Assembly: GCF_011040385.1 (NCBI RefSeq)
Contig: NZ_JAAIKB010000006.1
Span: 310,001-374,000, forward strand
Reading direction: 5' to 3'
Source: Falsiroseomonas algicola
GTDB taxonomy: Bacteria > Pseudomonadota > Alphaproteobacteria > Acetobacterales > Acetobacteraceae
DNA: 64,000 nucleotides
Positions 1,127-59,915 of the stretch are shown one piece after another (within the stretch, counting starts at the first letter, position 1; each line of letters opens with the position of its first letter). The translations under genes were made by a program, and so were the position numbers. The notes under the pieces are model-generated. The model saw nothing but the letters and a program-made list of their open reading frames with translations, was not told where the DNA came from and made no database searches.

Positions 1127-1216
1127 CTCAGACGCCGGGCGCGCGCTCCGCGCGCTTGGCTTCGCCGCACTTGCGGCGGGCCGCATTCGCGGCCTCGCCC
1201 GCCTCCGGCGGGCGCC
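1127..1216 (+). repeat. Modular hairpin repeat HR1, copy A (fliE-fliQ gap)
   Basis: A row of four short hairpins: stem GCGCGC with loop TCC, stem CGCCGC with loop ACTT, stem GGCCGC with loop ATTC, and stem GCCCGCC with loop TCC. Between the first two lies the conserved spacer TTGGCTTCGC. The left edge CTCAGACGCCGGGCG is shared with copies at 3387, 38026, 38172 and 59783 (the last three in opposite orientation). Stem sequences differ between copies but remain self-complementary. It lies inside an operon, so it is not a simple strong terminator. Confidence 0.8.
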
Positions 1217-1230
1217 TTTCGCGACGACTG

Positions 1231-1247
1231 AACCGCAGGAGGCGGTT
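1231..1247 (+). promoter_or_regulatory. fliQ ribosome binding site inside a small hairpin
   Basis: The Shine-Dalgarno AGGAGG (1237-1242) lies 9 bases before the fliQ ATG and sits in the loop and first stem base of an inverted repeat, AACCGC at 1231-1236 and GCGGTT at 1242-1247. The hairpin directly follows HR1 copy A. It decides the fliQ start at 1252 and could modulate access of ribosomes; that effect is inferred. Confidence 0.6.
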
Positions 1248-1251
1248 TCCC

Positions 1252-1530
1252 ATGGCCGATGGCGATACCATCGCGCTGGCCGGCCAGCAGGCGCTGTGGA
1301 CGGCGCTGCTGCTGGGCGGGCCGCTGCTCGTGCTGCTGCTCGTCATCGGCATGGCGATCGCGGTCGTGCAGGCGCTGACGCAGATCCAGGAGGCCTCGCT
1401 GGCCTTCGTGCCGAAGATGCTCGCACTCGGCATCGCATTGCTGCTCGGCGGCTCCGCCGCCGCCGGCATCATGCGCGGCTTCACCACGACTCTCTTCGAT
1501 CGCATCGTCGCCGTCGGCGGGGCCGGGTGA
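1252..1530 (+). CDS. fliQ: Flagellar export gate protein FliQ
   Basis: FliQ is a two-helix membrane component of the FliPQR export gate. From the ATG at 1252 the protein has 92 residues, close to the family norm of about 89, with two hydrophobic segments (roughly residues 14-38 and 52-72) and the conserved stretch VVQALTQIQEASLAFVPKML between them. The AGGAGG site 9 bases upstream supports this start over earlier in-frame ATGs, which would translate the hairpin repeat. The stop overlaps the fliR GTG start (GTGA). No fliP lies beside it. Confidence 0.93.
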   Translation: MADGDTIALAGQQALWTALLLGGPLLVLLLVIGMAIAVVQALTQIQEASLAFVPKMLALGIALLLGGSAAAGIMRGFTTTLFDRIVAVGGAG

Positions 1531-2294
1531 CGCCGACCCCTGAACTCGCGGAGATCGCCTTCGCCGCCATGCTGCTCGTGGCCCGGCTCGGCGCCTGCGC
1601 GCTGCTGCTGCCCGGTCTCGGCGAGATGGACATCCCCGCCCCCTTCCGCCTGGCGCTGGTGCTGGCCCTGGTGCCGCTGCTGCTGCCCGGGCTGATGCCC
1701 AGCCTGCCGCCCGCGCCCGACGACATCGGCGCCTATGCGCTGCTGATGGGCGGAGAGGTTGCGATCGGCATCTGGATCGGCCTGCTGGCGCGGCTGGTGG
1801 CGCTGGCGCTGGTCATGGCGGGGCAGCTCGCGGGCAGCTTCATCGGCCTGTCCAGCATCTTCGCGCCCGATCCCACCATGGGCGCGGGCAGTACCGCGCT
1901 CTCCCGCTTCATGGGGCTCGCCGCCGCGGCGCTCGCCCTCTCCTCGGGCCTCTATGCGCTGCCGCTGCGCGCGCTGGCCGAGAGCTACGCCGTGCTGCCC
2001 GCCGGCGCCGCGCTGGGTGGCGACTTCGCCGCGCAGGCCGTGACGGAAGCCAGCGCCGCCAGCCTCATCCTCGCCACCCGGCTCGCGGCACCGCTGCTGC
2101 TGCTGGCCGTGGTCGCGCAGGCCGCGACCGGCCTGCTGGCCCGCGTCGCGCCGCAGGCGCAGGTCTTCGTCCTCGCCGCGCCGGCGCAGGTGCTGGCGGG
2201 CCTCGCCCTCTTCGCGCTGCTGCTGCCCGCCATCTTCTCGCAATGGCTGGACAGCGCTCGCGCCGCCTGGTCGCTGCTGCCGGGGCTGGGCTGA
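1527..2294 (+). CDS. fliR: Flagellar export gate protein FliR
   Basis: FliR is the multi-spanning subunit of the FliPQR export gate. Starting from a GTG that overlaps the fliQ stop by four bases (GTGA), the protein is 255 residues, the normal family length, with about six hydrophobic segments. The stretch around AGQLAGSFIGLSSIFAPDP matches the conserved central FliR region. Translational coupling to fliQ is implied by the overlap. It is followed three bases after its stop by flhB. Confidence 0.93.
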   Translation: MTPTPELAEIAFAAMLLVARLGACALLLPGLGEMDIPAPFRLALVLALVPLLLPGLMPSLPPAPDDIGAYALLMGGEVAIGIWIGLLARLVALALVMAGQLAGSFIGLSSIFAPDPTMGAGSTALSRFMGLAAAALALSSGLYALPLRALAESYAVLPAGAALGGDFAAQAVTEASAASLILATRLAAPLLLLAVVAQAATGLLARVAPQAQVFVLAAPAQVLAGLALFALLLPAIFSQWLDSARAAWSLLPGLG

Positions 2295-2297
2295 GCC

Positions 2298-3350
2298 ATG
2301 GCCGGTGACGACAAGGACGCCGACGACAAGACAGAGGCCGCCACACCGCAGAAGCTGGAGAAGGCGCGGCGGGAGGGCGATGTGCCGATGTCGCGGGAAG
2401 CGGTGCAGGCCGCCTCCCTCGGCGGCGCGGCGCTCGGCCTCGCGATGATGGGGCCGGAAAGCGGCCGCGCGCTGATGCAGGCCACCGCCGCGCTCTTCGC
2501 CAATGCCCACCAGCTGCAACCCCGCGACGCCGCGATCGACCTGGCGCTGGCCGCGGCGCCGGCGGTGCTCGGCGTCGGTGGCCTGGCCGCCGTGGCTGCC
2601 GTGGCCGCGACGCTGCTGCAGACGCAGTTCCTCGTCTCCGGCAAGGGGCTGGTGCCGCAGTTCAACCGCCTCAATCCGATCGCGGGCCTGAAGAAGATGG
2701 TCGGCCCCCATGCGCTGGAGGAGCTGGCCCGCACGCTGGGGAAGCTCGGTGCCGTCGGCGCCTCGCTGTATTGGCAGATGGAGGATATCGCCCCCCTCGT
2801 CGCCGCGCTGGCGGAGGGGCCGGAGGCGCTGACGGAGGCGATCGGCACGCGGCTCGGCAGCCTGCTGACGGCGACGCTCGTCGCGGTCTGCGGCATCGCC
2901 GCCATCGACCTGCTCTGGACCCGCATCCGCTTCGCCCGGAAGATGCGCATGACGCGGGAGGAGATGAAGGACGAGCACAAGGAGAGCGAGGGCGACCCGC
3001 ATTTCCGCGCCCATCGCCTGGCGCTGATGCGCCGCCGCGGCCGCCGGCGCCAGGTGGCGGAGGTCGCGAACGCCACCGTCCTCGTCACCAACCCCACGCA
3101 CTACGCCGTCGCCCTGGCATACGACCGCGGCAAGGACGCCGCGCCCCGCATCATCGCCCGTGGCGTCGATGAACTCGCGGCCAAGATGCGCGCGGCGGCC
3201 GACAAGCACGGCGTGCCGATCATCCCGAACCCGCCCTTGGCCCGCGCGCTCTACAAGGTGCCCGAGGATGCGCAGATCCCGGAGGAGCATTTCCGCGCGG
3301 TGGCGGAGATCATCGCCCTGGTCTGGCGGCTGAAGCAGCCGCGCTACTGA
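2298..3350 (+). CDS. flhB: Flagellar export switch protein FlhB
   Basis: FlhB controls substrate switching from rod/hook to filament export. The 350-residue protein begins with the family N-terminus (DKTEAATPQKLEKARREGDV), has a hydrophobic membrane half with about four segments, and a cytoplasmic C-domain containing the autocleavage motif N265-P266-T267-H268, where family members self-cleave between Asn and Pro. Normal length. Last gene of the forward run; HR1 copy B follows, separating it from the convergent fliJ. Confidence 0.95.
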   Translation: MAGDDKDADDKTEAATPQKLEKARREGDVPMSREAVQAASLGGAALGLAMMGPESGRALMQATAALFANAHQLQPRDAAIDLALAAAPAVLGVGGLAAVAAVAATLLQTQFLVSGKGLVPQFNRLNPIAGLKKMVGPHALEELARTLGKLGAVGASLYWQMEDIAPLVAALAEGPEALTEAIGTRLGSLLTATLVAVCGIAAIDLLWTRIRFARKMRMTREEMKDEHKESEGDPHFRAHRLALMRRRGRRRQVAEVANATVLVTNPTHYAVALAYDRGKDAAPRIIARGVDELAAKMRAAADKHGVPIIPNPPLARALYKVPEDAQIPEEHFRAVAEIIALVWRLKQPRY

Positions 3351-3386
3351 TGCCAATGGCCCGTTCGCGTGACCGCTCCAAGGCCC

Positions 3387-3480
3387 CTCATGCGCCGGGC
3401 GCAGGCCTCCGGCCTGCCTGGCTTCGCCGCATCAGCGGCGGCGCCCATTCGGGCGCTCGGACCGGTCAAGCGACCGGTCC
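3387..3480 (+). repeat. Modular hairpin repeat HR1, copy B (flhB-fliJ gap)
   Basis: Same layout and orientation as copy A: left edge CTCATGCGCCGGGCG, hairpin GCAGGCC with loop TCC, spacer TGGCTTCGC, hairpin CGCCGC with loop ATCA, hairpin GCGCCC with loop ATTC, and a final hairpin GGACCGGTC with loop AAGC. The stems differ from copy A yet pair perfectly. It lies between convergent flhB and fliJ, and its final hairpin supplies the last four codons and TGA stop of fliJ. Confidence 0.8.
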
Positions 3481-3888
3481 GCTGGTGTGACCGCGCCGCT
3501 GCGACGCCTCGTCCAGCGCGTTCTGCTCGGCGCGCATCGCCTTGTCCCGCGCTTCCTGCTTCCGGCGGTCGCGGAGCCATTCCACCGCGCGTTCCTGCGC
3601 GCGCTGTTGCGCCAGCGCCATCCGCGCGGCCTCCACCGCCTGGGACGCCAGCGCGGCCTCGCCCGCCGCGCGTTCCCGCGCCGCGCGCGCCACCGGCAGC
3701 CAGGCCGCCAGGCTGTCGGCGAAATCACCGCCGCCCGCCAGCTCCGCCTCCATCGCACGCCGCGCCGCCGCCTCGCGCTCCGCCGCCGCCGCCGCGCCGG
3801 CCTGGCGGGCGACGAGGTCCCGCCGCGCCGCGGCTACTTCCAGCCCGCGCAGCTTCAGCAGCGCCGCCAGCGGATCGTGCCGCGCCAT
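3466..3888 (-). CDS. fliJ: Flagellar export chaperone-like protein FliJ
   Basis: A 140-residue, Ala/Arg/Glu-rich protein predicted to be almost entirely helical coiled coil, as in FliJ, the general chaperone and central stalk of the export ATPase ring. Sequence identity to the family is weak by eye; the call rests on length, composition and position immediately after fliI, whose stop overlaps this start by one base. The last residues (GPVA) and the stop lie in HR1 copy B, so the C-terminus may have been fixed by the repeat. Low-identity FliJ proteins are common. Confidence 0.75.
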   Translation of the reverse strand: MARHDPLAALLKLRGLEVAAARRDLVARQAGAAAAAEREAAARRAMEAELAGGGDFADSLAAWLPVARAARERAAGEAALASQAVEAARMALAQQRAQERAVEWLRDRRKQEARDKAMRAEQNALDEASQRRGHTSGPVA

Positions 3889-5219
3889 CAGCGCATCGCC
3901 TCCGCCAGCCGCGTGAAGGCCGCATCGACACCGATGCGCGGCTCATCCTTGCGCTGCGCCAGGAACTGCTCGATGCGCGGAGCGAGCCGCAGCGCCTCAT
4001 CCACCGCCGGATCGGTGCCGGCGCGATAGGCGCCGAGGCGGACGAGGTCCGCCATCTCCGCCGCGATGGAGAGCAGCGTCCGCGCCCGCAGCACCACTGG
4101 CCGCTCAGCCTCCGTCAGGCAGCCCGGCACGGTGCGGGACAGGCTGCGCAGCACGTCGATCGCGGGCCAGCGCCCGCGCTCGCCGATCTTCCGATCCAGC
4201 ACCACATGCCCATCCAGGATTCCGCGCACCGCATCCGCCACCGGCTCGTCATGGTCATCACCCTCCACCAGGACGGTGAAGAGACCGGTAATATGCCCGC
4301 CCTGATTCTCCAGGCAGGGGCCCGCGCGTTCCAGCAACCGCGGCAGCTCCGCGAAGACGCCGGGCGTATAGCCGCGCGTCGCCGGCACTTCGCCCGCCGC
4401 CAGGCCGATCTCCCGGCAGGCCAGCGCGAAGCGCGTGACGCTGTCCATCATCAGCAGGACATGCTTGCCCTCCCGCGCCAGCGATTCCGCGATGGTCATG
4501 GCCGCGAAGGCCGCTTCCCGCCGCATCGGCGCCGGCGCGTCGGAGGTCGCGCAGACCACGACGCTGCGCGCGAGCCCTTCCTCGCCCAGGTCGTCCTCGA
4601 TGAACTCGCGCAGCTCCCGCCCGCGCTCACCGACCAGGCAGATCACCGCGGCATCGCAGTCGGCGCCGCGCGCCAGCATGGACATCAGCGTGGACTTGCC
4701 GACGCCGGATGCCGCGAAGAGGCCGAGGCGCTGCCCGCGCCGCATGGTGCAGAACCCGTCCAGCGCCCGCACGCCGAGGTCGAGCCGCGGCCCGAGCCGC
4801 GCGCGCAGCGCCGCCTCCGGCGCCTTCACCCGCACCGGCAGCGCCACCGGCCCCGGCGGCAGCGGCCCCTTGCCATCCACGGGCCGCCCCAGCGGATCCA
4901 CCACGCGCCCGAGCCAGCCCGGCCCGGGGGAGAGCGTCGCCGTGCCCGCCAGCGCCACCGGCGCGCCGAGCCGGATGCCATCCAGCGGCGCGAAAGCCAC
5001 GGCCCGCGCCGCCTTGGGCGAGATGGCGACGACCTCCGCCGGCACCTCGCCCTCCGGCGAGGCCAGCGTCAGCCGCGACCCCACCGCGACGAAGCCACTC
5101 AACCCCGTCACCTCGACGGAGAGCGCATCGATGGACGCGACCGCGCCCTGGATGCGTTCGCCGGATCCCACGACCCGCAGCGCATCGGCCGCGCGGCGGG
5201 CCGAAAGCGCGATCGTCAT
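3888..5219 (-). CDS. fliI: Flagellum-specific export ATPase FliI
   Basis: FliI is the F1-beta-like ATPase that unloads flagellar substrates at the export gate. The 443-residue protein has the family N-domain, a Walker A loop (ASGVGKST), the Walker B region (HVLLMMDSVTRFA) and the hallmark ATRGYTPGVFAELPRLLERAG. The ATG at 5219 overlaps the cheR stop by four bases; longer in-frame extensions read into cheR/cheB in another frame and are rejected. It is unusual in being last-but-one in a chemotaxis operon (cheA-cheW-cheB-cheR-fliI-fliJ) with overlapping junctions. Confidence 0.95.
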   Translation of the reverse strand: MTIALSARRAADALRVVGSGERIQGAVASIDALSVEVTGLSGFVAVGSRLTLASPEGEVPAEVVAISPKAARAVAFAPLDGIRLGAPVALAGTATLSPGPGWLGRVVDPLGRPVDGKGPLPPGPVALPVRVKAPEAALRARLGPRLDLGVRALDGFCTMRRGQRLGLFAASGVGKSTLMSMLARGADCDAAVICLVGERGRELREFIEDDLGEEGLARSVVVCATSDAPAPMRREAAFAAMTIAESLAREGKHVLLMMDSVTRFALACREIGLAAGEVPATRGYTPGVFAELPRLLERAGPCLENQGGHITGLFTVLVEGDDHDEPVADAVRGILDGHVVLDRKIGERGRWPAIDVLRSLSRTVPGCLTEAERPVVLRARTLLSIAAEMADLVRLGAYRAGTDPAVDEALRLAPRIEQFLAQRKDEPRIGVDAAFTRLAEAMR

Positions 5220-6016
5220 GCGCGCCTCCACACGCCGCGCAGCCCCGCCACCGGCGCCAGCGGCGCCTGCAGGCCGAGCAGCGTTTCCGTCGCCCCCAGG
5301 CAGATCACGCCATCCGGTGCCAGATGCGCGGCGCAGGCGGCGACCACGCGTTCCTTCGTCGGCGGGTCGAAATAGATGAGCACGTTCCGCAGCAGCACGA
5401 TGTCGAAGGTGCCAAGGCTGCGCAGGTCGCCCAGCAGGTTCAGCACCTCGAACCGGCAGCAGCGGCGCACCGCCTCCGCCACGCGCCAGCCCGAACGTTC
5501 CTCCCGGAACCAGCGCGTGCGCTGCGCGGTGGACAGCCCGCGCTCCATCTCGAAGGCCGTGTAGAGCCCGGCGCGCGCGCGTTCCACCATCGCTGCCGAC
5601 AGGTCCGTGCCGAGGATGTCGAGGCGGCGGCGGCTGCCCGCTTCCTCCGCCGCCATCGCCAGCGAATAGGCTTCCTGGCCGGAGGAACAGGCCGCGGACC
5701 AGACCCGGATCGGCGCGCCCGCGGGGCGCGCGGCATCGAGTTCCGGCAGCACCACCTCCGCGATCTGGCGAAGTGGCGTCACGTCGCGGAAGAAGCTCGT
5801 CTCGTTCGTCGTCGTCGCTTCCGCCATCTCCCGCAGCAGCGCGGGTCCTTCCGCCGTCGGCAGGCGGCTGGCCAGGTCCGTCAGCGATGCCAGCCCACGC
5901 TGCTTCATCATCGGCGCCAGCCGCGCCTTCAGCAGGTAGCCCTTGTCGGCAGAGAGCGCGAGGCCGGAGACGGCGCGGATCGCCCGCGCGATCTCGTTGA
6001 AACCGGCGTCGGTCAT
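5216..6016 (-). CDS. cheR: Chemotaxis protein methyltransferase CheR
   Basis: CheR transfers methyl groups from S-adenosylmethionine to glutamates of chemoreceptors. The 266-residue protein has the N-terminal helical CheR domain, the diagnostic TTNETSFFRD, the SAM-binding segment (WSAACSSGQEAYSLAM) and the late motif FDIVLLRNVLIYFD. Length is normal. Start and stop overlap cheB and fliI by four bases each. The three receptors at 52-58 kb lack an evident C-terminal aromatic pentapeptide tether, so recruitment of CheR is probably tether-independent. Confidence 0.95.
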   Translation of the reverse strand: MTDAGFNEIARAIRAVSGLALSADKGYLLKARLAPMMKQRGLASLTDLASRLPTAEGPALLREMAEATTTNETSFFRDVTPLRQIAEVVLPELDAARPAGAPIRVWSAACSSGQEAYSLAMAAEEAGSRRRLDILGTDLSAAMVERARAGLYTAFEMERGLSTAQRTRWFREERSGWRVAEAVRRCCRFEVLNLLGDLRSLGTFDIVLLRNVLIYFDPPTKERVVAACAAHLAPDGVICLGATETLLGLQAPLAPVAGLRGVWRRA

Positions 6017-7056
6017 GCGCCCCCCGAGATCTCGGCGACGCGCCGTGCCAGTTCCTGGATGGGCAGCACTTCCCGCGCCGCGCCGCGTTCCACCACCGCG
6101 CCCGGCATGCCCCAGACCACGCTGCTCGCCTGGTCCTGCGCCAGCACCAGGCCGCCCGCGGCATTCACCGCCACGGCCCCCGTGCCGCCATCCGATCCCA
6201 TGCCCGTCAGCACCGCCGCCGCGGCGCGCGCGCCGTAGATGGCGGCGACGCTGCGCAGCATCGGGTCCACCGCCGGGCGGCAGAAATGCTCCGGCGGCGT
6301 GGTGGAGAGCGTCACCTCCGGCCCTTGCGCGACGACAAGATGCGACCCGCCCGGCGCCAGCAGCGCCGTCCCCGGCACCAGCGCGCCATGGTCCTTCGCC
6401 ACCGTCACCGGCACGGGGCCGAGGCGCGAGAGATGTTCCGCCAGCATCGGGATGAAGGCATCCGGCATGTGCTGCGTGACCAGGATCGGGATGCGCGGCC
6501 GCACGCGGAAGGCGCGGAAGATGGTGGCGAGCGCCTCCGGCCCGCCGGTGGAGGCACCGATCGCCAGCACCGCCGGCCCCATCCCCGGCGCGATCGGCGC
6601 GCGCCGGATGGGCGCGGCCGGCGCGGGGGCGGGCTGAGGCGGCACGCCGCGGCGGCGCAGCGCGCCATTGCCCTTGATCCGCGCGATCAGCTCCTCCGCG
6701 AAGATGCCGTCCTGGCCCGGCGATGGCTTGCCCAGGCAGTCCACGGCGCCCAGCCGCATCGCCTTCATCGCGACGCCGGCGCCCTGCGCGGAGAGGGAGG
6801 AAACCACCAGCACGCGCAGCCCCGGATCAGCCCGCAGCAGCAGCGGCAGCGCCGTCAGCCCGTCCATCACGGGCATCTCCAGGTCGAGCAGCGCGACATC
6901 GATGCCGCCGGCGCGGACCGCCTCCACCGCCTCCCGCCCGTTGCGGGCGCGGGAGACGACGCGGATCGCGGGATCCCCATCCAGGATGCGCACCACGGCG
7001 GCGCGCGCCACGGCGCTGTCGTCGCAGACAAGGACGCGCAGCGGCTCGATGGTCAT
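6013..7056 (-). CDS. cheB: Chemotaxis response regulator protein-glutamate methylesterase CheB
   Basis: CheB removes methyl groups from receptors (and deamidates glutamines) when phosphorylated by CheA. The 347-residue protein has an N-terminal receiver (VLVCDDSAVARA; phospho-acceptor Asp in VALLDLEMPVMDGL) and a C-terminal methylesterase domain with the Ser/His/Asp elements seen in IGASTGGPEAL, TQHMPDAF and VLTGMGSDGG. The start at 7056 overlaps the cheW stop (ATGA); upstream in-frame codons belong to cheW in another frame. It overlaps cheR by four bases. Confidence 0.95.
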   Translation of the reverse strand: MTIEPLRVLVCDDSAVARAAVVRILDGDPAIRVVSRARNGREAVEAVRAGGIDVALLDLEMPVMDGLTALPLLLRADPGLRVLVVSSLSAQGAGVAMKAMRLGAVDCLGKPSPGQDGIFAEELIARIKGNGALRRRGVPPQPAPAPAAPIRRAPIAPGMGPAVLAIGASTGGPEALATIFRAFRVRPRIPILVTQHMPDAFIPMLAEHLSRLGPVPVTVAKDHGALVPGTALLAPGGSHLVVAQGPEVTLSTTPPEHFCRPAVDPMLRSVAAIYGARAAAAVLTGMGSDGGTGAVAVNAAGGLVLAQDQASSVVWGMPGAVVERGAAREVLPIQELARRVAEISGGA

Positions 7057-11258: not shown

Positions 11259-11270
11259 TCTGAACGGCTA

Positions 11271-25805: not shown

Positions 25806-25830
25806 GGGGGTGGCGAGGATCGCCGCCCCC
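25806..25830 (+). terminator. Hairpin after flgE
   Basis: GGGGGTGGCGA, loop GGA, TCGCCGCCCCC: an 11-bp stem with one G-T pair, 16 bases after the flgE stop, no T-run. Likely transcript end or stabiliser for flgE. Confidence 0.6.
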
Positions 25831-25833
25831 GCC

Positions 25834-26022
25834 TTCCGCGGCAGGACGCCGCATGCTGTGCCCCGCGGCATGATGCCGCAGCCCATACCCCGCGGCAGGA
25901 TGCCGCAGCCCATACCCCGCGGCAGGATGCCGCAGTCCATACCCCGCGGCAGGACGCCGCAGCCCATACCCCGCGGCAGGATGCCGCCCCCATCACCCGC
26001 GACAGGATGCCGCGGGCCGCGC
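25834..26022. repeat. 27-bp tandem hairpin array
   Basis: About seven head-to-tail units of 27 bases (starts at 25834, 25861, 25888, 25915, 25942, 25969, 25996). Each unit contains the palindrome GCGGCAGGATGCCGC, with the linker AGCCCATACCCC between units. The central units differ by single bases; both ends are degenerate. The array fills the gap between flgE and the convergent Bug receptor gene. The period is a multiple of three, which keeps long spurious reading frames open on both strands. No unique spacers, so it is not a CRISPR. Confidence 0.9.
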
Positions 26023-26064
26023 CGGGACCGTGGCGGCCAGGATGGCCGCCGCGCCCCGCAGGCC

Positions 26065-30574: not shown

Positions 30575-30639
30575 TGGGGAAGGCGCTGCCTTCCCCAGAC
30601 CCCATCCGCCAGGCCCGAGACGGGCCTGGACCGTCGTCA
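30575..30639 (-). repeat. Two-hairpin repeat HR2, copy 1 (gdh-glycosylase gap)
   Basis: On the reverse strand it begins TGACGACGG, where TGA is the gdh stop codon, then hairpin CCAGGCCCG with loop TCT, then hairpin GGGGAAGGC with loop AGC. Copies at 46827 and 60785 share both stems exactly and vary only in loop bases and a few linker positions. Ends 12 bases before the glycosylase start. Confidence 0.85.
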
Positions 30640-38025: not shown

Positions 38026-38142
38026 ACCGCCCTCAGGCGGTGGCAAGCGGCCCGCCGCCCTTCAGGCGGGCCGAGGCGCCGAACGGCGCCCGCGGCTTAT
38101 GCCGCGAAGCCAAGCGCGCGGAGCGCGCGCCCGGCGCTTGAG
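38026..38142 (-). repeat. Modular hairpin repeat HR1, copy C
   Basis: Opposite orientation to A and B. Hairpins left to right: ACCGCC with loop CTCA; GGCCCGCC with an 8-base loop; GGCGCC with GAAC; CGCGGC with TTAT; spacer GAAGCCAAG; GCGCGC with GGA; right edge CCCGGCGCTTGAG. A 12-bp hairpin (CCGGTTCAGGCC, loop TCTTC) at 38143-38171 links it to copy D. The gap 37877-38324 contains no gene. Confidence 0.8.
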
Positions 38143-38171
38143 CCGGTTCAGGCCTCTTCGGCCTGAACCGG

Positions 38172-38337
38172 GCCGCCGTCAGGCGGCGGCAAGCGGCCCG
38201 CCACTCTTCAGGCGGGCCGAGGCGCCGAACGGCGCCCGCGGCTTATGCCGCGAAGCCAAGGCCCCGGAGGGGCCGCCCGGCGTCTGAGCGGTGACATGCC
38301 TCTCCGGCCTGAACCGGGCCGCCGTCAGGCGGCGGCA
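38172..38337 (-). repeat. Modular hairpin repeat HR1, copy D plus partial third unit
   Basis: Copy D (38172-38288) repeats copy C about 146 bases on, but with stem GGCCCC around GGA instead of GCGCGC. A truncated third unit (38306-38337) repeats the CGGCCTGAACCGGGCCGCC stretch and hairpin GCCGCC with loop GTCA, whose TCA is the reverse-strand TGA stop of the CBS gene at 38325. Confidence 0.78.
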
Positions 38338-46826: not shown

Positions 46827-46891
46827 CGGGGAAGGCGTTGCCTTCCCCGGACCCCATCCACCAGGCCCGAGACGGGCCTGGACCGTCGTCA
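46827..46891 (-). repeat. Two-hairpin repeat HR2, copy 2 (GST-VOC gap)
   Basis: Same two stems as copies 1 and 3; loops differ (AAC here). On the reverse strand it begins TGACGACGG nine bases after the GST stop and ends eight bases before the VOC start, filling the entire intergenic space. Confidence 0.85.
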
Positions 46892-51042: not shown

Positions 51043-51051
51043 CGCCCGCCC

Positions 51052-51993: not shown

Positions 51994-52097
51994 GGGCTGG
52001 CAGGCCGCGCTCGGAGCAACCCAGGCTTCTGTCGCCAGGCCCGGGCGAAAAGCCTCCCGCCCGGCACGCCGATCCAGTGGTCCACAGGCGTCACGCA

Positions 52098-52122
52098 GGG
52101 GGCTCCCCATCAGGAGCCCCCC
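52098..52122 (-). terminator. Terminator-like hairpin after the chemoreceptor operon
   Basis: GGGGGCTCC, loop CCATCA, GGAGCCCCC: a perfect 9-bp stem 14 bases past the last chemoreceptor stop on the reverse strand. No clear T-run on that strand. Probably ends the three-receptor transcript. Confidence 0.6.
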
Positions 52123-52135
52123 TTCTAGCCCAGCC

Positions 52136-54202
52136 TCACGCCGCGCGAATGGCCCCGAGGAAGTGGTCCACCTTGCCCCGCAGCCCTTCCGCCTGCCGTG
52201 CCAGCTCCGCCGAGGCGCCGCGCACCTCCGCCGCCGCGCTGCCCGTGCGTTCCGCATCGGCGCTGACGCCGGCGGCGTGCTCGGAGGCCTGGCGCGTCCC
52301 CGACGCCGCCCGCGCCACCGCCTGGCCGATCTCCTGCGTCGCGGCGGCCTGCTGCGCCGCCGTCTCCGCCACCTGGGCGGTCGCGGTGTTCAGCGTCTCG
52401 ATGGTGCGGGCGATGGCCTGCACCACCTCCACCGTCCGGCCGGTCTCGGCCTGCATCGCCGCGATCTGCGCGCCGATCTCCTCCGTCGCCTTCGCCGTCT
52501 GCGCCGCCAGCGTCTTCACCTCGCTGGCCACCACCGCGAAACCCTTCCCCGCCTCGCCCGCCCGCGCCGCCTCGATCGTCGCATTCAGCGCCAGCAGGTT
52601 GGTCTGCCCGGCGATGTCGCCGATCAGCTTCACCACATCGCCGATGCGCGACGCGGCGTCCGACAGGCCGCGCACCGTCGCATCCGTCCGCTCCGCCGCT
52701 TCCGTCGCCTGGCGCGCCGCCGCGGCGCTGGCATCGATCTGGCGCACCACCTCCCCGATCGAGGCCGAAAGCTCCTCCGTCGCCGCCGCCACGCTGCCGA
52801 CATTGGCGCTGGCCATGGCGGTGCTGTCCGCGACGGCCGCAGCGCGCGCCGACCCGTCCCGCGCCGTCGTCGCCATGCCCGTCGCCGTCGCATCCAGCTC
52901 CGTCGCGGCGGAAGCCACGGTCTTCAGCGCATCGGCCGTCTCCGCCTCGAACTGCCGCAGCAGCGCATCGACGCGCGCCGCCCGGGCCGCCCGCGCCTCG
53001 CGCTCCGCCGCCTGCGCGGCTTCCAGCGCGTTGCGCTCGGCGGAGGCCGCGCGCAGCTGGTCCACCGCCTGCGCCACCTCCCCCAGCTCGTCCCGCCGCG
53101 CGCTGCCCGGCACCACCAGCGTCAGCTCGCCGCCGCCGATCCGCCGCACCACGCGCGCCAGGTCAGCCAGCGGGGAGACCAGATGCCGCATCAGCACCAC
53201 CAGCGCGCCGCCCATCACCAGCAGCGTCGCCAGCGCCATGCCACCGATGATCGCCAGGTCCTGCCAGCCCTGCGCCACCATCGCCTCGCCCTTGGCGATC
53301 GCCTCCTCCAGCGCCGCGTCGCGCACGCCGACCATCTGCGTCAGCGCGCCGGTGGAGAAGCGGCGATGCGCCGTGGGATCGTTCGGCCAGGCTTCCGTGC
53401 CGCCGGCCAGGCGCAGCGCGCCGATGCGCACCAGGTTGCGGAAGCCGGGCTCGCCGCTCGCCAGGTAGCCCTGCCGGATGGAGCTGTCATAGGCCCGCGT
53501 CAGCGGCGCGGAGCCCACCGCCTCCACCAGCCGTTCCAGCGTCGCCAGGATCTCCTCGACCCGCCCGGTCAGCTGCTGCGCCGTCACCAGCGCCTCCGGC
53601 GTGATGGTGCCGCCGCCGACCCAGCCATTCAGCAGCAGGCCGCGCCGGCCGGCGATGTCGCGCAGCTGCCCGCCCTGCATCGCCGTCTCCAGCAGCGGCG
53701 CCAGCGCCGGCGCCAGGCGCGACAGCTCGCGCGCCGCCTCCCGCGCCATGCCGCTCAGCCGGTTGCCATGGTCGTTGCGCACCTGCGCCAGCTCCCGCGC
53801 CACGGCGCTGTCGCGCGCGGCCGGCGGCTGGGATGCCGCCGCCAGCGCGCGTTCCGTCAGCGCCGTCATCGCCCGCAGCGCGTCGCGCGGCGCCGCCGGA
53901 TCGAGCCCCGCCGCCCGCGCATTCGCCTCCGCCGATCCGAGCAGCCGCTGCATCTCCGCCTGCCCCGCGCGGAGATCCGCGACGTCGGGCTGCGCCACCA
54001 CCATCGCCGTGCTGATGCGCGCGGATTGCAGCGCGAAGGCGGTCTGCCCGCGCAGCACCTCATCGATCAGGCGGGTCGCGCTCACGACGCGCTCGGTCTG
54101 CCGCACCTCCCGCCAGGCTTCCTTCGCCTGCCAGGCCAGCGCGACCAGCCCGGGCAGGGCGACCAGGGTGAAACACAAAAGCAGCCATTGGCGAACGCGC
54201 AT
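52136..54202 (-). CDS. Methyl-accepting chemotaxis protein 1
   Basis: A 688-residue chemoreceptor: transmembrane helix at about 6-25, a helical periplasmic domain to about 325, second transmembrane helix near 326-346, HAMP (to about 400), and a signalling domain with the invariant hairpin tip [36 protein letters not shown] (written in two parts). The C-terminus is FLGAIRAA with no CheR-tether pentapeptide. Last of three tandem receptor genes; its signalling-domain DNA differs at many silent positions from receptors 2 and 3. Start at MRVRQW (54202). Confidence 0.95.
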
Positions 54203-54230
54203 CACACCCTGTCCCTTGCCGTCCTGGTCG

Positions 54231-56300
54231 TCACGCCGCGCGGATGGCGCCGAGGAAATGGTCCACACGCCCGCGCAGCCCTTCCGCCTGCCGCGCCAGC
54301 TCTGCCGAGGCGCCGCGCACCTCCGCCGCCGACTGGCCGGTCTGCTCCGCGCCCTCGCTCACGCCCTCGGCGTGGCGGGACGCTTCCTGCGTGCCCTGCG
54401 CCGCCGCCGCCGCGGCGCGCCCGATCTCCTGCGTCGCCTCCGCCTGCTGCGACGCCGCCTCCGCCACCTGCGCCGTGTTCCGGTTCAGCGCCTCGATCGT
54501 CCCCGCGATGGCCCGCACCACCTCGACCGTCCGCCCGGTCTCCGCCTGCATCGCCGCGATCTGCGCGCCGATCTCCTCCGTCGCCTTCGCCGTCTGCGCC
54601 GCCAGCGCCTTCACTTCCGACGCGACGACCGCGAAGCCCTTGCCCGCCTCGCCAGCCCGCGCCGCCTCGATCGTCGCATTCAGCGCCAGCAGATTCGTCT
54701 GCCCCGCGATGTCGCCGATCAGCCGCACCACGTCGCCGATGCGCGACGCGGCTTCCGACAGCCCGCGCACCGTCACATCGGTCCGCTCCGCCGCCTCCGT
54801 CGCCTGCTGCGCGGTCCGCGTGCTCGCCTCCACCTGGCGCAGCACCTCCCCGATCGAGGCCGAGAGTTCCTCCGTCGCCGCGGCCACGCTGCCCACGCTG
54901 GCACTCGCCTCGGCCGAGGACCGCGCCACCGCGCCCGCGCGCTGCGTGCCATCCGCGGCGGTCGAGGCCATGCTCGTCGCCGTCGCATCCAGCTCCGTCG
55001 CCGCGGCGGCGACCGCCCGCAGCACATCCGCCGTCTCGGCCTCGAACTCCCGCAGCAGCGCATCGACGCGCTGCGCGCGGTCCAGCCGCGCCGCCTGTTC
55101 CTGCTTCTGCGCCGCTTCCAGCGCCTCCCGCTCCAGCGACGCCAGCCGCAGCTGATCGACGGCCCGCGCCATCTCGCCAAGCTCGTCCGGCCGTTCCCGC
55201 GCCGGCACCGCCAGCGTCAGCTCACCCTCGCCGATCCGCCGCACCGTGCCGGTCAGCTGGCCGAGCGGCGCCACCATGCCCCGCAGCAGCATCACCAGCG
55301 CCGCCGCCATCAGCGCCGCCGTCAGCACCATCCCCGCGACGGAGACGCCCAGCTGGAAGCGCGCCGAGGCGTCAGCCGCCGCCGCGCGCTCCAGCGCCTC
55401 GTCCAGCGCCGCGTCGCGCATGTCGAGCAGCCGCGCCAGCGTCCGGATCGTATAGGCGCTGAAGGCCGCCGTATCCTGCGGCCAGGGCGTATTCGCCGTC
55501 GCCGGCTGCAGCCGCGCGCGCGCCACGCGCAGGAAGCTACGCCAATAGGGATCGGCCTCCTGCCCCAGCAGCCGCTTCTGCTCCTCCAGCGCGCGGGTCA
55601 GCCGCGGCGCGCCGGAGGCCTCCACCAGCCGCTCGATATTGGCCACCGACTCCGCGACGCGGCCGCTCAGCTCCACCAGCCCTTCCAGCGCTTCCGGCTG
55701 GATCGGCGCGCCGCCGACCCAGGGCGAGACACCCAGCGCGCGCCGCCCCGCCACTTCCCGCAGCGTCATCGCGTGCAGCGCAACCTCGATGAAGGGCGCG
55801 ACATCCGGGGCGGTGGTGGTGACGATGCGCGCCGCCTCCCCCCCGATCGCATTCAGCCGCGTGCTGAGATCGGCGCGCCGCGCCAGCACCTCCTGCAGCA
55901 AGGCGGGATCGCGCGCCGGCACGGGCTGCGCCGATGCCGCCGTCACCCGGCGCATCAGCTCCTCCAGCGCCGTCGTCGCCTCCCGCACCACTGTCGCGTC
56001 GGTGCCGGCCGCCGCCATGCTGCGCGTCGCCGCCGCCAGGCGCTCCATCGCCGCCTCATGCGTCTGCCGCATCCCCGCCAGGTCCGGGGTGGGCGCGCGC
56101 AGCGCCACGGTCAGGTTGCCGGTCTGCACCGCGAAGGCGGATTGCGCCCGGCCGATGTCGCTGAACACCTGCGTCGCCCGGGTCGCGCGTTCCGCCCGCG
56201 CGGAATCCCGCCAGGCATCGCTGGCGAACCAGGCAGAGAGCGCCAGCCCCGGCGCCGCGATGGCGATAAAGCCGAGGAGGAAACGTGACTGGATACGCAT
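54231..56300 (-). CDS. Methyl-accepting chemotaxis protein 2
   Basis: A 689-residue receptor with the same plan as its neighbours: N-terminal transmembrane helix ([19 protein letters not shown]), periplasmic helical sensor, second transmembrane helix near 325-345, HAMP and signalling domain. Ligand unknown. From about 54304 to 54899 the DNA is identical by eye to 56444-57039 of receptor 3, including silent positions, while the sensor halves differ. ATG at 56300 preferred to 56312. Ends 28 bases before receptor 1. Confidence 0.95.
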
Positions 56301-56370
56301 CAGGAATCCCACATCGATCGACCGCGGCAGGATAGCCCCGCCACCCTTGCCCGCGGCTTAATCCGGCGGC

Positions 56371-58434
56371 TCACGCCGCGCGGATGGCGCCGAGGAAATG
56401 GTCCACCCGCCCGCGCAGCCCTTCCGCCTGCCGCGCCAGCTCCGCCGAGGCGCCGCGCACCTCCGCCGCCGACTGGCCGGTCTGCTCCGCGCCCTCGCTC
56501 ACGCCCTCGGCGTGGCGGGACGCTTCCTGCGTGCCCTGCGCCGCCGCCGCCGCGGCGCGCCCGATCTCCTGCGTCGCCTCCGCCTGCTGCGACGCCGCCT
56601 CCGCCACCTGCGCCGTGTTCCGGTTCAGCGCCTCGATCGTCCCCGCGATGGCCCGCACCACCTCGACCGTCCGCCCGGTCTCCGCCTGCATCGCCGCGAT
56701 CTGCGCGCCGATCTCCTCCGTCGCCTTCGCCGTCTGCGCCGCCAGCGCCTTCACTTCCGACGCGACGACCGCGAAGCCCTTGCCCGCCTCGCCAGCCCGC
56801 GCCGCCTCGATCGTCGCATTCAGCGCCAGCAGATTCGTCTGCCCCGCGATGTCGCCGATCAGCCGCACCACGTCGCCGATGCGCGACGCGGCTTCCGACA
56901 GCCCGCGCACCGTCACATCGGTCCGCTCCGCCGCCTCCGTCGCCTGCTGCGCGGTCCGCGTGCTCGCCTCCACCTGGCGCAGCACCTCCCCGATCGAGGC
57001 CGAGAGTTCCTCCGTCGCCGCGGCCACGCTGCCCACGCTCGAACTCGCCTCGGCCGAGGACCGCGCCACCGCGCCCGCGCGCTGCGTGCCATCCGCCGCC
57101 GTCGCCGCCATGCTGCTCGCCGTCGCGTCCAGCTGCGTCGCCGCCGCCGCCACCGTGCGCAGCACGCCGGCCGTCTCCTGCTCGAAATCGTGCAGCAGCG
57201 CGTCCACCCGCCGCGCGCGCTCCAGCTGCGCCGCCTGTTCCTGCTTCCGCGCCGCCTCCAGCGCCTCCCGCTCCAGCGACGCCAGCCGCAGCTGATCGAC
57301 GGCCCGCGCCATCTCGCCAAGCTCGTCCGTCCGTTCCCGCGCCGGCACCGCCAGCGTCAGCTCACCCTCGCCGATCCGTCGCACCGTGCCGGTCAGCTGC
57401 CCGATCGGCAGCACCACGCGGCGCAGCAGCAGCACCAGCGCCGCGCCCAGCAGCAGCGCGATCGTCACCGCCGCGACCAGCGCGATGCCAAGGTCCCGGC
57501 GCGCTTCCGCCGCCGCGCCCTCGCCGAAGTCCCGCGCCTCCTCCAGCGCCGCATCGCGCAGCGCCACCTGCGCCGTCAGCGCCGCCGGCGCGAAGGCGCG
57601 GTACTGCGCCAGGTCCATCGACCAGCCCGTGCCCGCCGTGCCGACGCGCCCGACCGCCTCCTCCAGCACCCGCCGCCACGTCACTTCCGACCCATTGATG
57701 AATCCCTGGCGCTGCGCCTCCAGCGCCTGCATCAGCCGCGGCGTGCCGATGGCGCGCGCCAGGCGTTCCGCGCTGGCGAACGCCTCCTTGATGCCGCCGC
57801 TGAGTTCCATCGCGTTGCGCAGCACCGCCGGCTGCACCATCTGGCCGCCCACCCAGCCCGTCATCGGCAGGGATCGCTGGCCGCTCAGGTCGCGCAGCGA
57901 CGCCACATGCATCGCGACCTCCAGCCGCATCGCCAGCGCGGGCTGGGAGATCGCGAGTTCCCGCCCGATGGCCAGCGCCAGCTGCGTCATCCCCGCGCCG
58001 AGTTCCGCCCGTGCCGCCGGCAGGTCCCGCAGCAGCGCGCCGTCGCGCTGCGGCAGGGGAATGCGCCCCGTCTCCGTCGCCCGCCGCCGGAAATCCTCCA
58101 TCCGCCGCTGCGTCGCCCGCAGCGCCGCGGGGTCGAAGCCCGCCGCCGTCACGCTGGCGATGGCACGGTCCAGCAGCCCGCTCATCTCCGCATGCCCGCG
58201 GTCGAGATCCGCGAAATCCGGCTGCGCCGCCAGCGCCACCGCGCTGACCCGCCCGGCCTGCGTGCCGTAGACCGATGACGCGCGCAGCACGTCGCTGATC
58301 GCGGCCGTCGCGCGCAGCCCGCGCTCCGCCACCGAGACCTCCCGCCACCCCTGGACCGCGAACCACAGCGCCAGCAGCAACCCCGGTAGTGCCACCAGGC
58401 CGAAGCCGAGCAGGAAGGCGTGGCGGATGCGCAT
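56371..58434 (-). CDS. Methyl-accepting chemotaxis protein 3
   Basis: A 687-residue chemoreceptor, first gene of the three-receptor operon. N-terminal transmembrane helix ([19 protein letters not shown]), periplasmic region to about 330, second transmembrane helix ([18 protein letters not shown]), HAMP with [20 protein letters not shown], and signalling domain nearly identical to receptor 2. Ends FLGAIRAA. Ligand unknown. Divergent from the DegT gene; the 170-base gap shows no promoter I can support. Confidence 0.95.
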
Positions 58435-58605
58435 CTTGGGTCCTCGTGACCGTGACAGGTCGCGGAGGATTACCCGTGTTACATGACCAGCCCGCTAACG
58501 GACCGCCTCATCGGCCCGCCGGCAACGCCCCGAAACCGCCGGTGATTTGGCCGACGCGGCCCCCGGGTCTATTGGACCCCCGTCTCGACCGGATGACGGA
58601 TTGCC

Positions 58606-59757
58606 ATGACCTCTCCTGCCCCCATCGCCCTGTTCGACATGAAGGCCCAGCAGGCCCTGATCCGGGCGGAGATCGACCGCCGCCTGGCCTCCGTGCTCGA
58701 CAGCGGCCGCTTCATCAACGGGCCGGAGGTGCAGGAACTCGAACAGAAGCTCGCGGCCTTCGCGGGCTGCGCCCATGCCGTCGGCGTCTCCTCCGGCACC
58801 GATGCGCTGCAGATCGCCATGATGGGCGCCGGCATCGGCCGCGGCGACGCCGTCTTCCTGCCCGCCTTCACCTATACCGCGACGGCCGAAGTGCCCCTCG
58901 TGCTCGGCGCCACGCCGATCTTCGTCGATGTCCACCCCGGCACCTTCAACATCGACATCGACGACCTGAAGCGCCGCATCGCGCTGGTGGAAAGCCAGGG
59001 CCGGCTGCGCCCCGCCGCCATCGTGGGTGTGGACCTCTTCGGCCTGCCCGCCGACTGGCCGGCGATCGAGGCGCTCTGCGCGGAGAAGGGCATGTTCGCC
59101 CTCGACGACGCCGCCCAGGCCTTCGGCGCCGCGCTCCACGGCAAGCGCCTCGGCCGCTGGGGCCATGCCGCGGCGCTCAGCTTCTATCCCACCAAGACGC
59201 TCGGCTGCTATGGCGATGGCGGCGCGCTGCTGACCGATGACGCGGACCGCGCCGAACTCTGGCGCAGCCTGCGGACGCATGGCGAGGGCAAGACCCGCTA
59301 CGAGGTCGAGCGCACCGGCATGAACGGGCGGCTCGACACCATGCAGGCCGCCATCCTGCTGCCGAAGCTCGGCCTGCTGGAGGCCGAGCTCGCCTCCCGC
59401 GCCCGCATCGCCGCTGCCTACAACCAGGGCCTGGCCGGCAAGGTTCAGACGCCCGTGACGACGGAAGGCGCCGACCACGCCTGGGGCCTCTACTCCATCC
59501 TGGTGGAGGACGAGGCCGCCCGCGCCCGCGTCCAGGACGCCTGCAAGGCCGCCGGCGTGCCGACCGCGATCTACTACCCGAAGTCGCTGCACCGGCAGCC
59601 CGCCTACGCGGCCGCCCATGCCGGCGCCATCAGCAACGCCCCCGAACTGCCGGTGGCGGAGATGCTCTGCCGCCGCATCATGTCGCTCCCCATGCACCCC
59701 TACCTGACCGAGGAGGAGGTCGCGCGGGTCGTCGCGGCCGTAGCCGGCGCGGTCTGA
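58606..59757 (+). CDS. DegT/DnrJ/EryC1-family sugar aminotransferase
   Basis: A 383-residue PLP-dependent aminotransferase acting on keto-sugars. Signatures are SGRFINGPEVQELEQKLAAF, AVGVSSGTDALQIAMMGAGI, and the PLP-lysine block SFYPTKTLGCYGDGGAL; the MNGRLDTMQAAIL segment is typical. Length normal. It may act after a 4,6-dehydratase such as the one at 49078 to make an amino-deoxy sugar, but the genes are not adjacent, so this is inference. Confidence 0.93.
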   Translation: MTSPAPIALFDMKAQQALIRAEIDRRLASVLDSGRFINGPEVQELEQKLAAFAGCAHAVGVSSGTDALQIAMMGAGIGRGDAVFLPAFTYTATAEVPLVLGATPIFVDVHPGTFNIDIDDLKRRIALVESQGRLRPAAIVGVDLFGLPADWPAIEALCAEKGMFALDDAAQAFGAALHGKRLGRWGHAAALSFYPTKTLGCYGDGGALLTDDADRAELWRSLRTHGEGKTRYEVERTGMNGRLDTMQAAILLPKLGLLEAELASRARIAAAYNQGLAGKVQTPVTTEGADHAWGLYSILVEDEAARARVQDACKAAGVPTAIYYPKSLHRQPAYAAAHAGAISNAPELPVAEMLCRRIMSLPMHPYLTEEEVARVVAAVAGAV

Positions 59758-59782
59758 CGCCAACGCCCGAACGTGTTGATTT

Positions 59783-59915
59783 GCGGCCGGCAAGGCCGGC
59801 CGAGGCCGCGACGGGTGCCCATGCGCGTTGCTGCGCAACGTGCATGGGGTCCCGGAATGCGGCCCGCCGCCTGTGCGGCGAAGCCAAGCCGGCGGAGCCG
59901 GCGCCCGGCGCCTGA
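59783..59915 (-). repeat. Modular hairpin repeat HR1, copy E with inserted hairpin
   Basis: Opposite orientation to copies A and B. Left hairpin GGCCGGC with loop AAG; core with GCCGC loop CTGT, spacer GCGAAGCCAAG, stem CCGGC around GGA, right edge CGCCCGGCGCCTGAG. Where other copies have a small GGCCGC-type hairpin, this one carries an extra 41-base hairpin (59813-59853, stem GGGTGCCCATGCGCGTTGC, loop TGC, two mismatches). The 297-base gap 59758-60054 holds this repeat plus a weak GCCTCAA / TTGAGGC hairpin near 59974-60000. Confidence 0.78.

What the first reader, a model, noticed from the sequence alone, without database searches (positions are those of the whole stretch)
1127..59915. A modular intergenic repeat family (HR1) whose hairpin stems co-vary
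Five copies (1127, 3387, 38026, 38172, 59783) share a frame: right edge CGCCCGGCGYNTGAG, a stem-GGA-stem hairpin, spacer GCGAAGCCAAG, a second hairpin with a 4-base loop, then further hairpins (orientation varies). The spacers are conserved but the stem sequences differ between copies (for example GCGCGC, GCAGGCC, GGCCCC, CCGGC around GGA) while remaining perfectly self-complementary. That pattern means selection, or the copying mechanism, preserves pairing rather than sequence. It resembles REP/BIME-type elements but with unusually free stems.
Basis: partly seen in the sequence, partly recalled or inferred. Interest (0 to 1): 0.7.

Follow-up and report, generated by a model that had tools for sequence, protein, structure and literature searches.

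The report
Stop-codon-duplicating mobile DNA with swappable hairpins
A family of roughly 140-200-letter jumping DNA pieces, found in several groups of alphaproteobacteria and often inserted exactly at a gene's stop codon, is built as a row of hairpins whose stems change freely, often a whole hairpin at a time, while almost always staying self-matching.

Summary
A model from 12 copies finds 97 matches at E<=1e-3 in this genome, and matches in all 15 same-genus genomes searched but only 5 of 44 others; exact-frame relatives lie in other alphaproteobacterial orders. Stem covariation is real: 218 of 234 S4 hairpins found without asking for pairing pair fully (shuffled mean 44); in 73 relatives 323 cells changed on both sides, 7 on one side only, 54 do not pair. 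G.T pairs are about 13 times rarer than in 22 tRNAs of the same loci, suggesting DNA-level pairing. Of 38 orthologous S4 comparisons, 21 are identical, 12 changed at 2-3 base pairs on both sides, none at exactly one, 5 show one-sided change or decay. It does not look like REP/BIME: no Y1 transposase in those 15 genomes. Full copies end TACC...GGTA between 3-bp TNA repeats (24 of 30; shuffled mean 9), 17 of 30 at a predicted stop codon. Window copies 2 and 5 duplicate a TGA stop codon at sites empty in relatives. Best reading: a MITE-like transposon with exchangeable DNA hairpins; its transposase was not found.

The parts
1114..1228 (-). HR1 copy 1 (no TACC/GGTA ends; outer limits approximate), between FliE and FliQ-type (Bac_export_3) genes; S1 GCCCGCC/GGCGGGC, S2 GGCCGC, S3 CGCCGC, S4 CGCGC around GGA
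   Evidence: site empty in G006, G013 and G004
3351..3487 (-). HR1 copy 2, full-length 137 bp, ends CACCAGCGG...CCATTGGCA (one base off TACC and GGTA at each end); S4 CAGGCC around GGA
   Evidence: site empty in G006, G013, G004 and G008
3348..3350 (+). TGA: stop codon of the FlhB-family gene (2298-3350) and first copy of the 3-bp target duplication; second copy at 3488-3490
3488..3490 (+). second TGA copy of the target duplication of HR1 copy 2
38027..38172 (+). HR1 copy 3, first unit of a 146-bp tandem; S4 CGCGC around GGA
   Evidence: a two-unit tandem with 137-bp spacing is at the same place in G006
38173..38318 (+). HR1 copy 4, second unit of the tandem; S4 GCCCC around GGA, so S4 differs between two units that are 88% identical
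59758..59961 (+). HR1 copy 5, full-length 204 bp, ends CGCCAACG...CGTTGGTC (two bases off TACC, one off GGTA); S2 loop carries a nested 45-nt hairpin; S4 CCGGC around GGA; 3' terminal hairpin ACCAACG...CGTTGGT
   Evidence: site empty in G006
59755..59757 (+). TGA: stop codon of the DegT/DnrJ/EryC1 aminotransferase-family gene (58606-59757) and first copy of the target duplication; second copy at 59962-59964 (identity extends to 7 bp, GGTCTGA)
59962..59964 (+). second TGA copy of the target duplication of HR1 copy 5
59878..59888 (+). conserved linker GCGAAGCCAAG (example; also 1155-1165 -, 3417-3427 - with one mismatch, 38104-38114 +, 38250-38260 +)
59902..59916 (+). conserved tail CGCCCGGCGYNTGAG (example; also 1127-1141 -, 3387-3401 -, 38128-38142 +, 38274-38288 +)

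Best explanation
HR1 is a MITE-like, non-autonomous DNA transposon family. SHOWN: the 30 copies with exact ends are 115-204 bp (mostly 137-204), end in TACC...GGTA, and 24 of them lie between 3-bp direct TNA repeats; many sites are empty in sister species; the TNA is often the TGA or TAA stop codon of a neighbouring predicted gene, so the insertion leaves the stop codon intact; most copies examined sit at gene 3' ends. The interior is a row of four to six hairpins with fixed loops and linkers and nearly free stems, and at orthologous sites a stem can differ at 2-3 base pairs at once. INFERRED: a trans-acting DDE transposase moves the element (TNA points to an IS5/IS1031-type enzyme); the hairpins act as DNA (extruded or single-stranded), so that Watson-Crick pairing is kept but sequence is not; and the unit of change is mainly the whole hairpin, exchanged between the roughly 100 copies by recombination or template switching through the shared linkers. 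What the hairpins do (transposition substrate, or binding a host or replication protein) is not shown.
For: Family: 97 matches at E<=1e-3 in this genome; 15 of 15 same-genus genomes, 2 of 20 other genera of the family and 3 of 24 others. Mobility: window copies 1, 2 and 5 absent at the same place in relatives; three more own sites empty in G006, G013 and G004, one more with 10-23 nt instead of an element in all three, and one occupied in G006 but with 7 nt in G013. TSD: with exact TNATACC...GGTATNA ends 24 of 30 are direct TNA repeats, 4 inverted (shuffled mean 9.0, max 17 of 1000); with flanks left free 13 of 18 are direct (mean 3.6, max 9), and 15 of 18 left and 16 of 18 right flanks are TNA; 17 of 30 coincide with a predicted stop codon. 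Position: 112 tandem, 63 convergent, 7 divergent, 7 in a predicted ORF, of 189 scored loci in three genomes, against 37/6/24 for 67 other gaps of 100 bases or more. Covariation: 95.3% of 1149 cells paired, 323 changed on both sides. DNA level: G.T 8 of 1227 paired S4 cells and, by my count from the table, 10 of 1095 paired cells, against 46 of 553 in tRNAs. Exchange: of 38 S4 comparisons, 21 identical, 12 (7 sites) changed on both sides at 2-3 bp, 0 at exactly 1 bp, 3 one-sided to G.T, 2 decayed; S2 and S3, directly adjacent, show no association (MI 0.100, shuffled 0.118).
Against: No transposase with these ends was found: the TIR scans of the six PF13340 loci of this genome and of all held DNA gave none, but other IS5-type families and most of the genome were not scanned. 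The TIRs are short (only TACC/GGTA nearly constant) and unlike the one IS1031-group TIR I saw in print. Window copies 2 and 5 have imperfect ends, copies 1, 3 and 4 none; the five Sphingomonadales copies I looked at show none. In 6 of the 30 exact-end copies the TNA flanks differ, and only 22 of 85 loosely matched copies have equal 3-bp flanks. Hairpin exchange is not complete: S2 and S4 alleles are associated (MI 0.697, shuffled 0.415, 0 of 500 as high), S3 and S4 weakly, and S3 variants differ mostly by single base pairs. Unpaired cells do occur (54 of 1149; 21 of 1248). Some swaps may be longer conversion tracts (L197/L223: S3, S4 and tail differ together), and the L185, L199 and L208 sites are tandem arrays, where unit-by-unit orthology is less sure.
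Confidence: 0.68

Rival explanations
1. HR1 carries a structured non-coding RNA, or an mRNA 3'-end structure, and stems covary because selection keeps the RNA fold by stepwise compensatory mutation.
For: Fixed loops and linkers with covarying stems across orders; most copies sit at gene 3' ends; the core diverges less than its surroundings between orthologs (5.7% against 8.9% intergenic and 16.7% at third codon positions).
Against: G.T pairs are 0.65% of S4 pairs against 8.3% in 22 tRNAs folded by minimum energy; only 7 one-sided changes that still pair against 323 double-sided, though 54 cells are unpaired; both orientations relative to the upstream gene occur in tandem gaps (47 opposite, 35 same, 30 undetermined); no Rfam match in the window at gathering thresholds, and in three loci one far-below-threshold hit, outside the element; copies are absent at many orthologous sites.
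Confidence: 0.15
2. Pairing is kept by mutation itself: replication template switching in quasi-palindromes copies one arm onto the other, so stems drift but stay matched, without selection.
For: Pairs are almost purely Watson-Crick; the common S3 alleles differ by one or two G-C/C-G flips.
Against: At orthologous sites no S4 changed at exactly one base pair on both sides, while 7 parsed sites changed at 2-3 at once; loops and linkers stay fixed across orders, which this process does not explain.
Confidence: 0.12
3. REP/BIME-type elements moved by a RAYT (Y1) transposase.
For: Intergenic, palindromic, tens to about a hundred copies per genome, at gene 3' ends.
Against: PF01797 found in none of the 15 same-genus genomes and in only 2 of the 20 element-bearing genomes (five positive controls ring); TIR with TNA duplication; no GTAG-type tag in the conserved linkers.
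Confidence: 0.03
4. Chance hairpins in a GC-rich genome.
For: GC-rich DNA folds easily.
Against: 0 reversed-pattern matches against 30; arm shuffles reach at most 60 of 234 against 218; slid controls fall to 27-51% paired.
Confidence: 0.01

Closest known systems
Bacterial MITEs (miniature inverted-repeat transposable elements)
   Same: Short, non-coding, multi-copy, inverted terminal ends, short target duplication, empty sites in relatives, no transposase gene inside.
   Different: TIR nearly constant over only about 4-9 bp; interior is a conserved row of hairpins with free stems and fixed linkers; target is commonly a stop codon; parent element unknown.
IS5 family, IS1031 group
   Same: 3-bp TNA target duplication (one passage seen in PMC12016507).
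   Different: HR1 ends TACC..., whereas the one member quoted there (ISLrh) has TIR GAACCTGTCTAGTATCT; no HR1-ended element found at the six PF13340 loci of this genome.
REP/BIME (REPtron) and GTAG/CGTC-tagged repeats
   Same: Intergenic palindromes; within REP families complementary stem changes occur (passages of PMC3733652); in one REP system exchanging the whole stem only moderately affected cleavage while a mismatch seriously reduced it (passages of PMC8266576).
   Different: REPs are 20-40 bp (abstract start of PMC3733652 in a listing) with a GTAG or CGTC tag, and GTAG families are linked to Y1 transposases; HR1 has neither, and has TIR and TSD.
Mitochondrial double-hairpin and repetitive hairpin-forming elements
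   Same: Dispersed multi-hairpin elements in intergenic DNA, thought to be mobile (abstract and passages of PMC2800124).
   Different: In the sponge elements described there stems are conserved and loops vary (two types differ by a few complementary substitutions); in HR1 loops are fixed and stems vary. A closer parallel with the Allomyces elements is recalled, not read.

Membership tests
MITE | terminal inverted repeats | tested here: met
   TACC...GGTA, often TACCARCGG...CCGTTGGTA; not in all copies
MITE | target-site duplication | tested here: met
   TNA direct repeat in 24 of 30 exact-end copies; agrees with empty sites
MITE | short, no transposase gene, multi-copy | tested here: met
   115-204 bp for the 30 exact-end copies; 97 matches at E<=1e-3 in own genome
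MITE | autonomous parent with the same ends | tested here: inconclusive
   none found in held DNA; the whole genome was not scanned for ends
IS5/IS1031-mobilised | 3-bp TNA duplication | tested here: met
   the rule itself from one passage
IS5/IS1031-mobilised | IS1031-like TIR, or a resident IS5-type transposase with HR1 ends | tested here: inconclusive
   TIR compared with one published member only and unlike it; six PF13340 loci without HR1 ends; other IS5-type families not searched
REP/BIME | Y1/RAYT transposase in the genome | tested here: not met
   0 of 15 same-genus genomes
REP/BIME | GTAG or CGTC-type tetranucleotide at the foot of the hairpin | tested here: not met
   conserved linkers are GA, A(A)GCCAAG and CGCCCGGCGNNTGAGGG
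known structured RNA (Rfam 15) | match to a covariance model | tested here: not met
   none in the window at gathering threshold; none on the element in three loci at E<=1
structured RNA under selection | transcription as a defined RNA | not testable with these tools
   no RNA data

The most novel reading that the evidence does not exclude
HR1 is a mobile DNA whose unit of inheritance below the element is the hairpin: cells exchange whole hairpins between copies, breaking linkage even between hairpins that touch, so that an element family can keep a multi-hairpin DNA architecture across bacterial orders while its stem sequences are almost arbitrary, and it spreads harmlessly because its target duplication rebuilds the stop codon it lands on.
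Probability: 0.33. Interest if true: 0.82.

Novelty: new variant of a known kind. Interest (0 to 1): 0.63.

Why it matters
If right, it gives a clean natural case in which pairing is inherited and sequence is not, at DNA level, with in-place swaps between species about 90% identical. That makes it possible to test how hairpins are exchanged or corrected in replicating bacteria. It also offers a simple reason why such elements sit at gene ends: a TNA target duplication restores a TGA or TAA stop codon. Covariation alone is widely taken as a sign of functional RNA; HR1 suggests that the share of G.T pairs may help to tell DNA-level hairpins from RNA.

Tried and rejected
REP/RAYT origin: rejected on absence of PF01797 and on TIR/TSD. 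A 7-bp target duplication (first suggested by GGTCTGA at copy 5 and a 7-bp overlap at L423) was dropped in favour of 3-bp TNA: the second case needs a mismatch at 7 bp and none at 3, another site fits only 3 bp, and with the 3-bp limits copy 5 is 204 bp, the length of two exact-end copies (203, 204). The two models are not fully separated by these cases. A guide-like pairing between the 3' terminal hairpin and the target was noticed but not tested. Gene calls by GC position alone put genes on the wrong strand and were replaced by a codon-usage caller trained on this window; its training set still held some overlapping antisense frames, and it was also applied to other taxa. The search for an autonomous copy in the loci then held plus the window (2.37 Mb), in six PF13340 loci and in stretches of 60 further contigs, 338 kb, together with all loci, found no pair of HR1-like ends with equal TNA flanks; the best TACC...GGTA pair near HR1 (L363, 1494 bp, flanks TCA and TGA) may be the ends of two HR1 copies. 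Phage records: no match; 16 viral contig stretches match exactly and were not followed. Papers, as listings: searches (Roseomonas with 'repetitive extragenic palindromic'; six terms) gave 0; some searches gave listings, in none of which a title or start of abstract described such an element. I therefore found no description in print in those ten searches of open-licence papers only; this is not proof of absence. PMC10969869 and PMC7031236 were searched for passages and gave nothing on the point.

Rows dropped before counting: 10 of 48 rows that were not HR1 (tRNA, coding or other matches, judged by eye), and 4 of 42 ortholog pairs that did not parse. In one search, 2 of 191 loci were not scored. 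In one search only elements with S3 and S4 paired were counted. Counts that lean my way: A3 was picked from copies that parsed as paired, A4 was fitted to the model; exact-frame sets favour young copies; the three sister genomes share sites, so loci are not independent; copy numbers are lower bounds, since at most 84 or 150 candidates per genome were scored; G006 and G013 carry contamination figures of 7 and 6.
Full report
WHAT IS THERE. Read on the strand with the linker, the usual form is S1 hairpin - GA - S2 (6 bp, loop GAAN or GGAT) - S3 (6 bp, loop NNRT) - A(A)GCCAAG - S4 (5-6 bp, loop GGA or GGAT) - CGCCCGGCGNNTGAGGG. Of the 30 exact-frame copies in the genome, S2 pairs at this fixed spacing in 23 and S3 in 25; the others carry longer or altered hairpins. 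A search of the whole genome with only linker and tail fixed, GAAGCCAAG-N6-24-CGCCCGGCG, gave those 30 places and none for the reversed control. A covariance model from 12 copies that parsed as paired gave 101 matches at E<=1, of which 97 at E<=1e-3 (E-values are rough).

IS THE COVARIATION REAL. In S4 nothing in the search pattern asks for pairing. Over the 391 loci then held (own genome, two sister species, other genomes and named GTDB contigs), 218 of 234 exact-frame S4 regions pair fully under a fixed 3- or 4-nt loop, against a mean of 43.7 (max 60 of 500) when 3' arms are shuffled among elements of equal length; there are 50 different 5' arms. On 73 matches in 63 of the 117 GTDB stretches (alignment fitted to the model), 95.3% of 1149 cells pair (61.6% shuffled, 27-51% when slid); 323 cells changed on both sides, 7 on one side while still pairing, and 54 do not pair (sums from its table). 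On the 12 model sequences, chosen for pairing, all 204 cells pair and no pair varies on one side only. The changes are mainly G-C to C-G flips. In the S4 set G.T makes up 8 of 1227 paired cells (0.65%), with 21 mismatched cells; in 22 tRNAs found in the held DNA and folded by minimum energy it is 46 of 553 (8.3%). By my count from its table, one search has 10 G.U among 1095 paired cells. An RNA kept by compensatory evolution should show more G.U; I read this as pairing kept at DNA level (inference; the tRNA sample is small).

DISTRIBUTION. All 15 same-genus genomes have 44-85 matches (lower bounds), 2 of 20 other genera of the family have 38 and 56, and 3 of 24 other families have 3, 15 and 23. 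Contig lengths identify G004 as Falsiroseomonas stagni DSM 19981, G007 as Roseomonas sp. AR75 and G009 as F. bella CQN31 (inference from equal lengths).

IT MOVES. Between species about 90% identical many sites differ. Window site 1 is empty in G006, G013 and G004; site 2 is empty in these and in G008. Window copy 5 is absent in G006, where gene end and next spacer join directly; G013 and G008 hold other short sequence there, and in G004 the two flanks are contiguous in the hit table. In own region L423 three elements are all absent from G006, G013 and G004; in L425 one site has only 10-23 nt in the three relatives, and another is occupied in G006 but has 7 nt in G013. The tandem copies 3-4 are shared with G006, as are many other sites, so not all copies are recent.

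ENDS AND TARGET. Full-length copies carry TACC...GGTA ends, often TACCARCGG...CCGTTGGTA. Among 85 elements with loosely matched ends 22 have identical 3-bp flanks (shuffled mean 5.5, max 14); with at most one mismatch per end 10 of 15 (mean 3.1, max 7). With exact TNATACC...GGTATNA, 24 of 30 are direct repeats and 4 inverted (shuffled direct mean 9.0, max 17); with flanks left free, 13 of 18 are direct, 15 of 18 left and 16 of 18 right flanks are TNA. The 30 lengths run from 115 to 204 bp, mainly 137-139, 145-149, 157-159 and 203-204. So the target is TNA and it is duplicated. In 17 of 30 the TNA is the stop codon of a predicted neighbour, 9 on the left and 8 on the right. In the window, copy 2 lies between the TGA of the FlhB-family gene (3348-3350) and a second TGA (3488-3490), and copy 5 between the TGA of an aminotransferase-family gene (59755-59757) and a second TGA (59962-59964); their ends are one or two bases off TACC and GGTA. 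An insertion at a TGA therefore keeps the stop codon. With a codon-usage gene caller trained on this window, 182 of 189 scored loci are intergenic: 112 tandem, 63 convergent and only 7 divergent, while other gaps of 100 bases or more in the same loci are 37, 6 and 24; the median distance of the model match to the nearest gene 3' end is 40 bases; tandem copies lie in both orientations (47 opposite, 35 same, 30 undetermined). Insertion elsewhere may be equally common and purged; this does not show targeting beyond TNA.

HOW STEMS CHANGE. At orthologous sites (G000, G006, G013), 38 S4 comparisons remain after dropping 10 of 48 rows that were not HR1: 21 identical arms, 12 comparisons (7 sites) with 2-3 base pairs changed on both sides and full pairing, none with exactly one, 3 one-sided changes to G.T, and 2 decayed. 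An eighth site, L180/L162 (GCCCC against CGGCC), was read by eye. Three of the sites (L185, L199, L208) are tandem arrays, where unit-by-unit orthology is less sure. At L185/L134 S3 is identical and the tail nearly so, while the whole S4 differs; at L206/L172 the loop changes with the stem. Among 93 elements with parsed S2, S3 and S4 there are 45 combinations; the touching hairpins S2 and S3 are unassociated (MI 0.100 against 0.118 shuffled), S3-S4 weakly associated (0.339 against 0.216, 5 of 500 shuffles as high; 109 elements) and S2-S4 clearly (0.697 against 0.415, 0 of 500). So reassortment is extensive but subfamilies remain. Over 29 ortholog pairs the core diverges by 122 of 2141 sites (5.7%), intergenic DNA by 8.9% and third codon positions by 16.7%; leaving out nine pairs with a swapped S4 (my choice after seeing the data) the core value is 42 of 1492 (2.8%). 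Constraint, recent conversion, or both would give this.

NESTED MODULES. Some copies carry a 30-nt hairpin, GTCACGCCNNNGGCGTGCCTTCGGCACGAC or close to it, in the tail palindrome or in S3, present in one species and absent in the other at the same site (L033/L135, L176/L224, L061/L248), and a 45-nt hairpin in the S2 loop (L035/L130; also window copy 5). L133/L274 carries a variant of the 30-nt module in which three positions differ together. Hairpins are thus also gained or lost whole.

WHAT MOVES IT. PF01797 (IS200/IS605 TnpA and RAYT, as recalled) is absent from all 15 same-genus genomes and from 18 of the 20 element-bearing genomes (five positive controls ring). The 3-bp TNA duplication is what one paper reports for the IS1031 group of the IS5 family (PMC12016507, one passage seen). 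Scans of six loci with the IS5-type domain PF13340 in this genome showed no HR1-like ends, and no long element with such ends and equal TNA flanks was found in the held DNA. The transposase is therefore inferred, not shown.

VERDICT. HR1 is a real, widespread, mobile family. As an element it is MITE-like; what is unusual is the interior, a row of DNA hairpins with fixed loops and linkers, nearly arbitrary stems, and S4 changes that come several base pairs at a time.

Noticed in passing
window 30575-30639, 46827-46891, 60785-60849: A second dispersed intergenic repeat of about 65 nt (GGGGAAGGC...CAGGCCCGAGACGGGCCTGGACCGTCGTCA), 94-98% identical between copies. Short repeats of similar size with many hits in G004, G006 and G013 also lie at L423:18807-18868 and L425:3125-3190; whether they are the same was not checked.
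   Followed up: no
window 3466-3888 (-): The predicted FliJ-like reading frame ends 22 nt inside HR1 copy 2, so the insertion may have changed its C-terminus; not compared with the sister species.
   Followed up: no
L033/L135, L176/L224, L061/L248, L133/L274, L212: A nested 30-nt hairpin module whose middle arm can pair with either side; in L133/L274 three positions differ together. It may be a separate tiny mobile unit.
   Followed up: partly
window 59878-59964 and L043, L055, L190, L205, L212: The 5' arm of the 3'-terminal hairpin is often complementary to the flanking target bases (3 bp at window copy 5, up to 7-9 bp by eye elsewhere), as if the target were chosen by, or copied into, the hairpin. 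Not tested against shuffles.
   Followed up: no
L393 (G013), between the aminotransferase gene end and the next spacer: Where own has HR1 copy 5, G013 has about four head-to-tail units of some 27 nt resembling the gene's last bases including its TGA.
   Followed up: no
window 52136-58434: Three neighbouring predicted genes on the - strand sharing 300-nt blocks at 79-99% identity.
   Followed up: no
window 25809-26024: A tandem repeat of 27-nt units.
   Followed up: no
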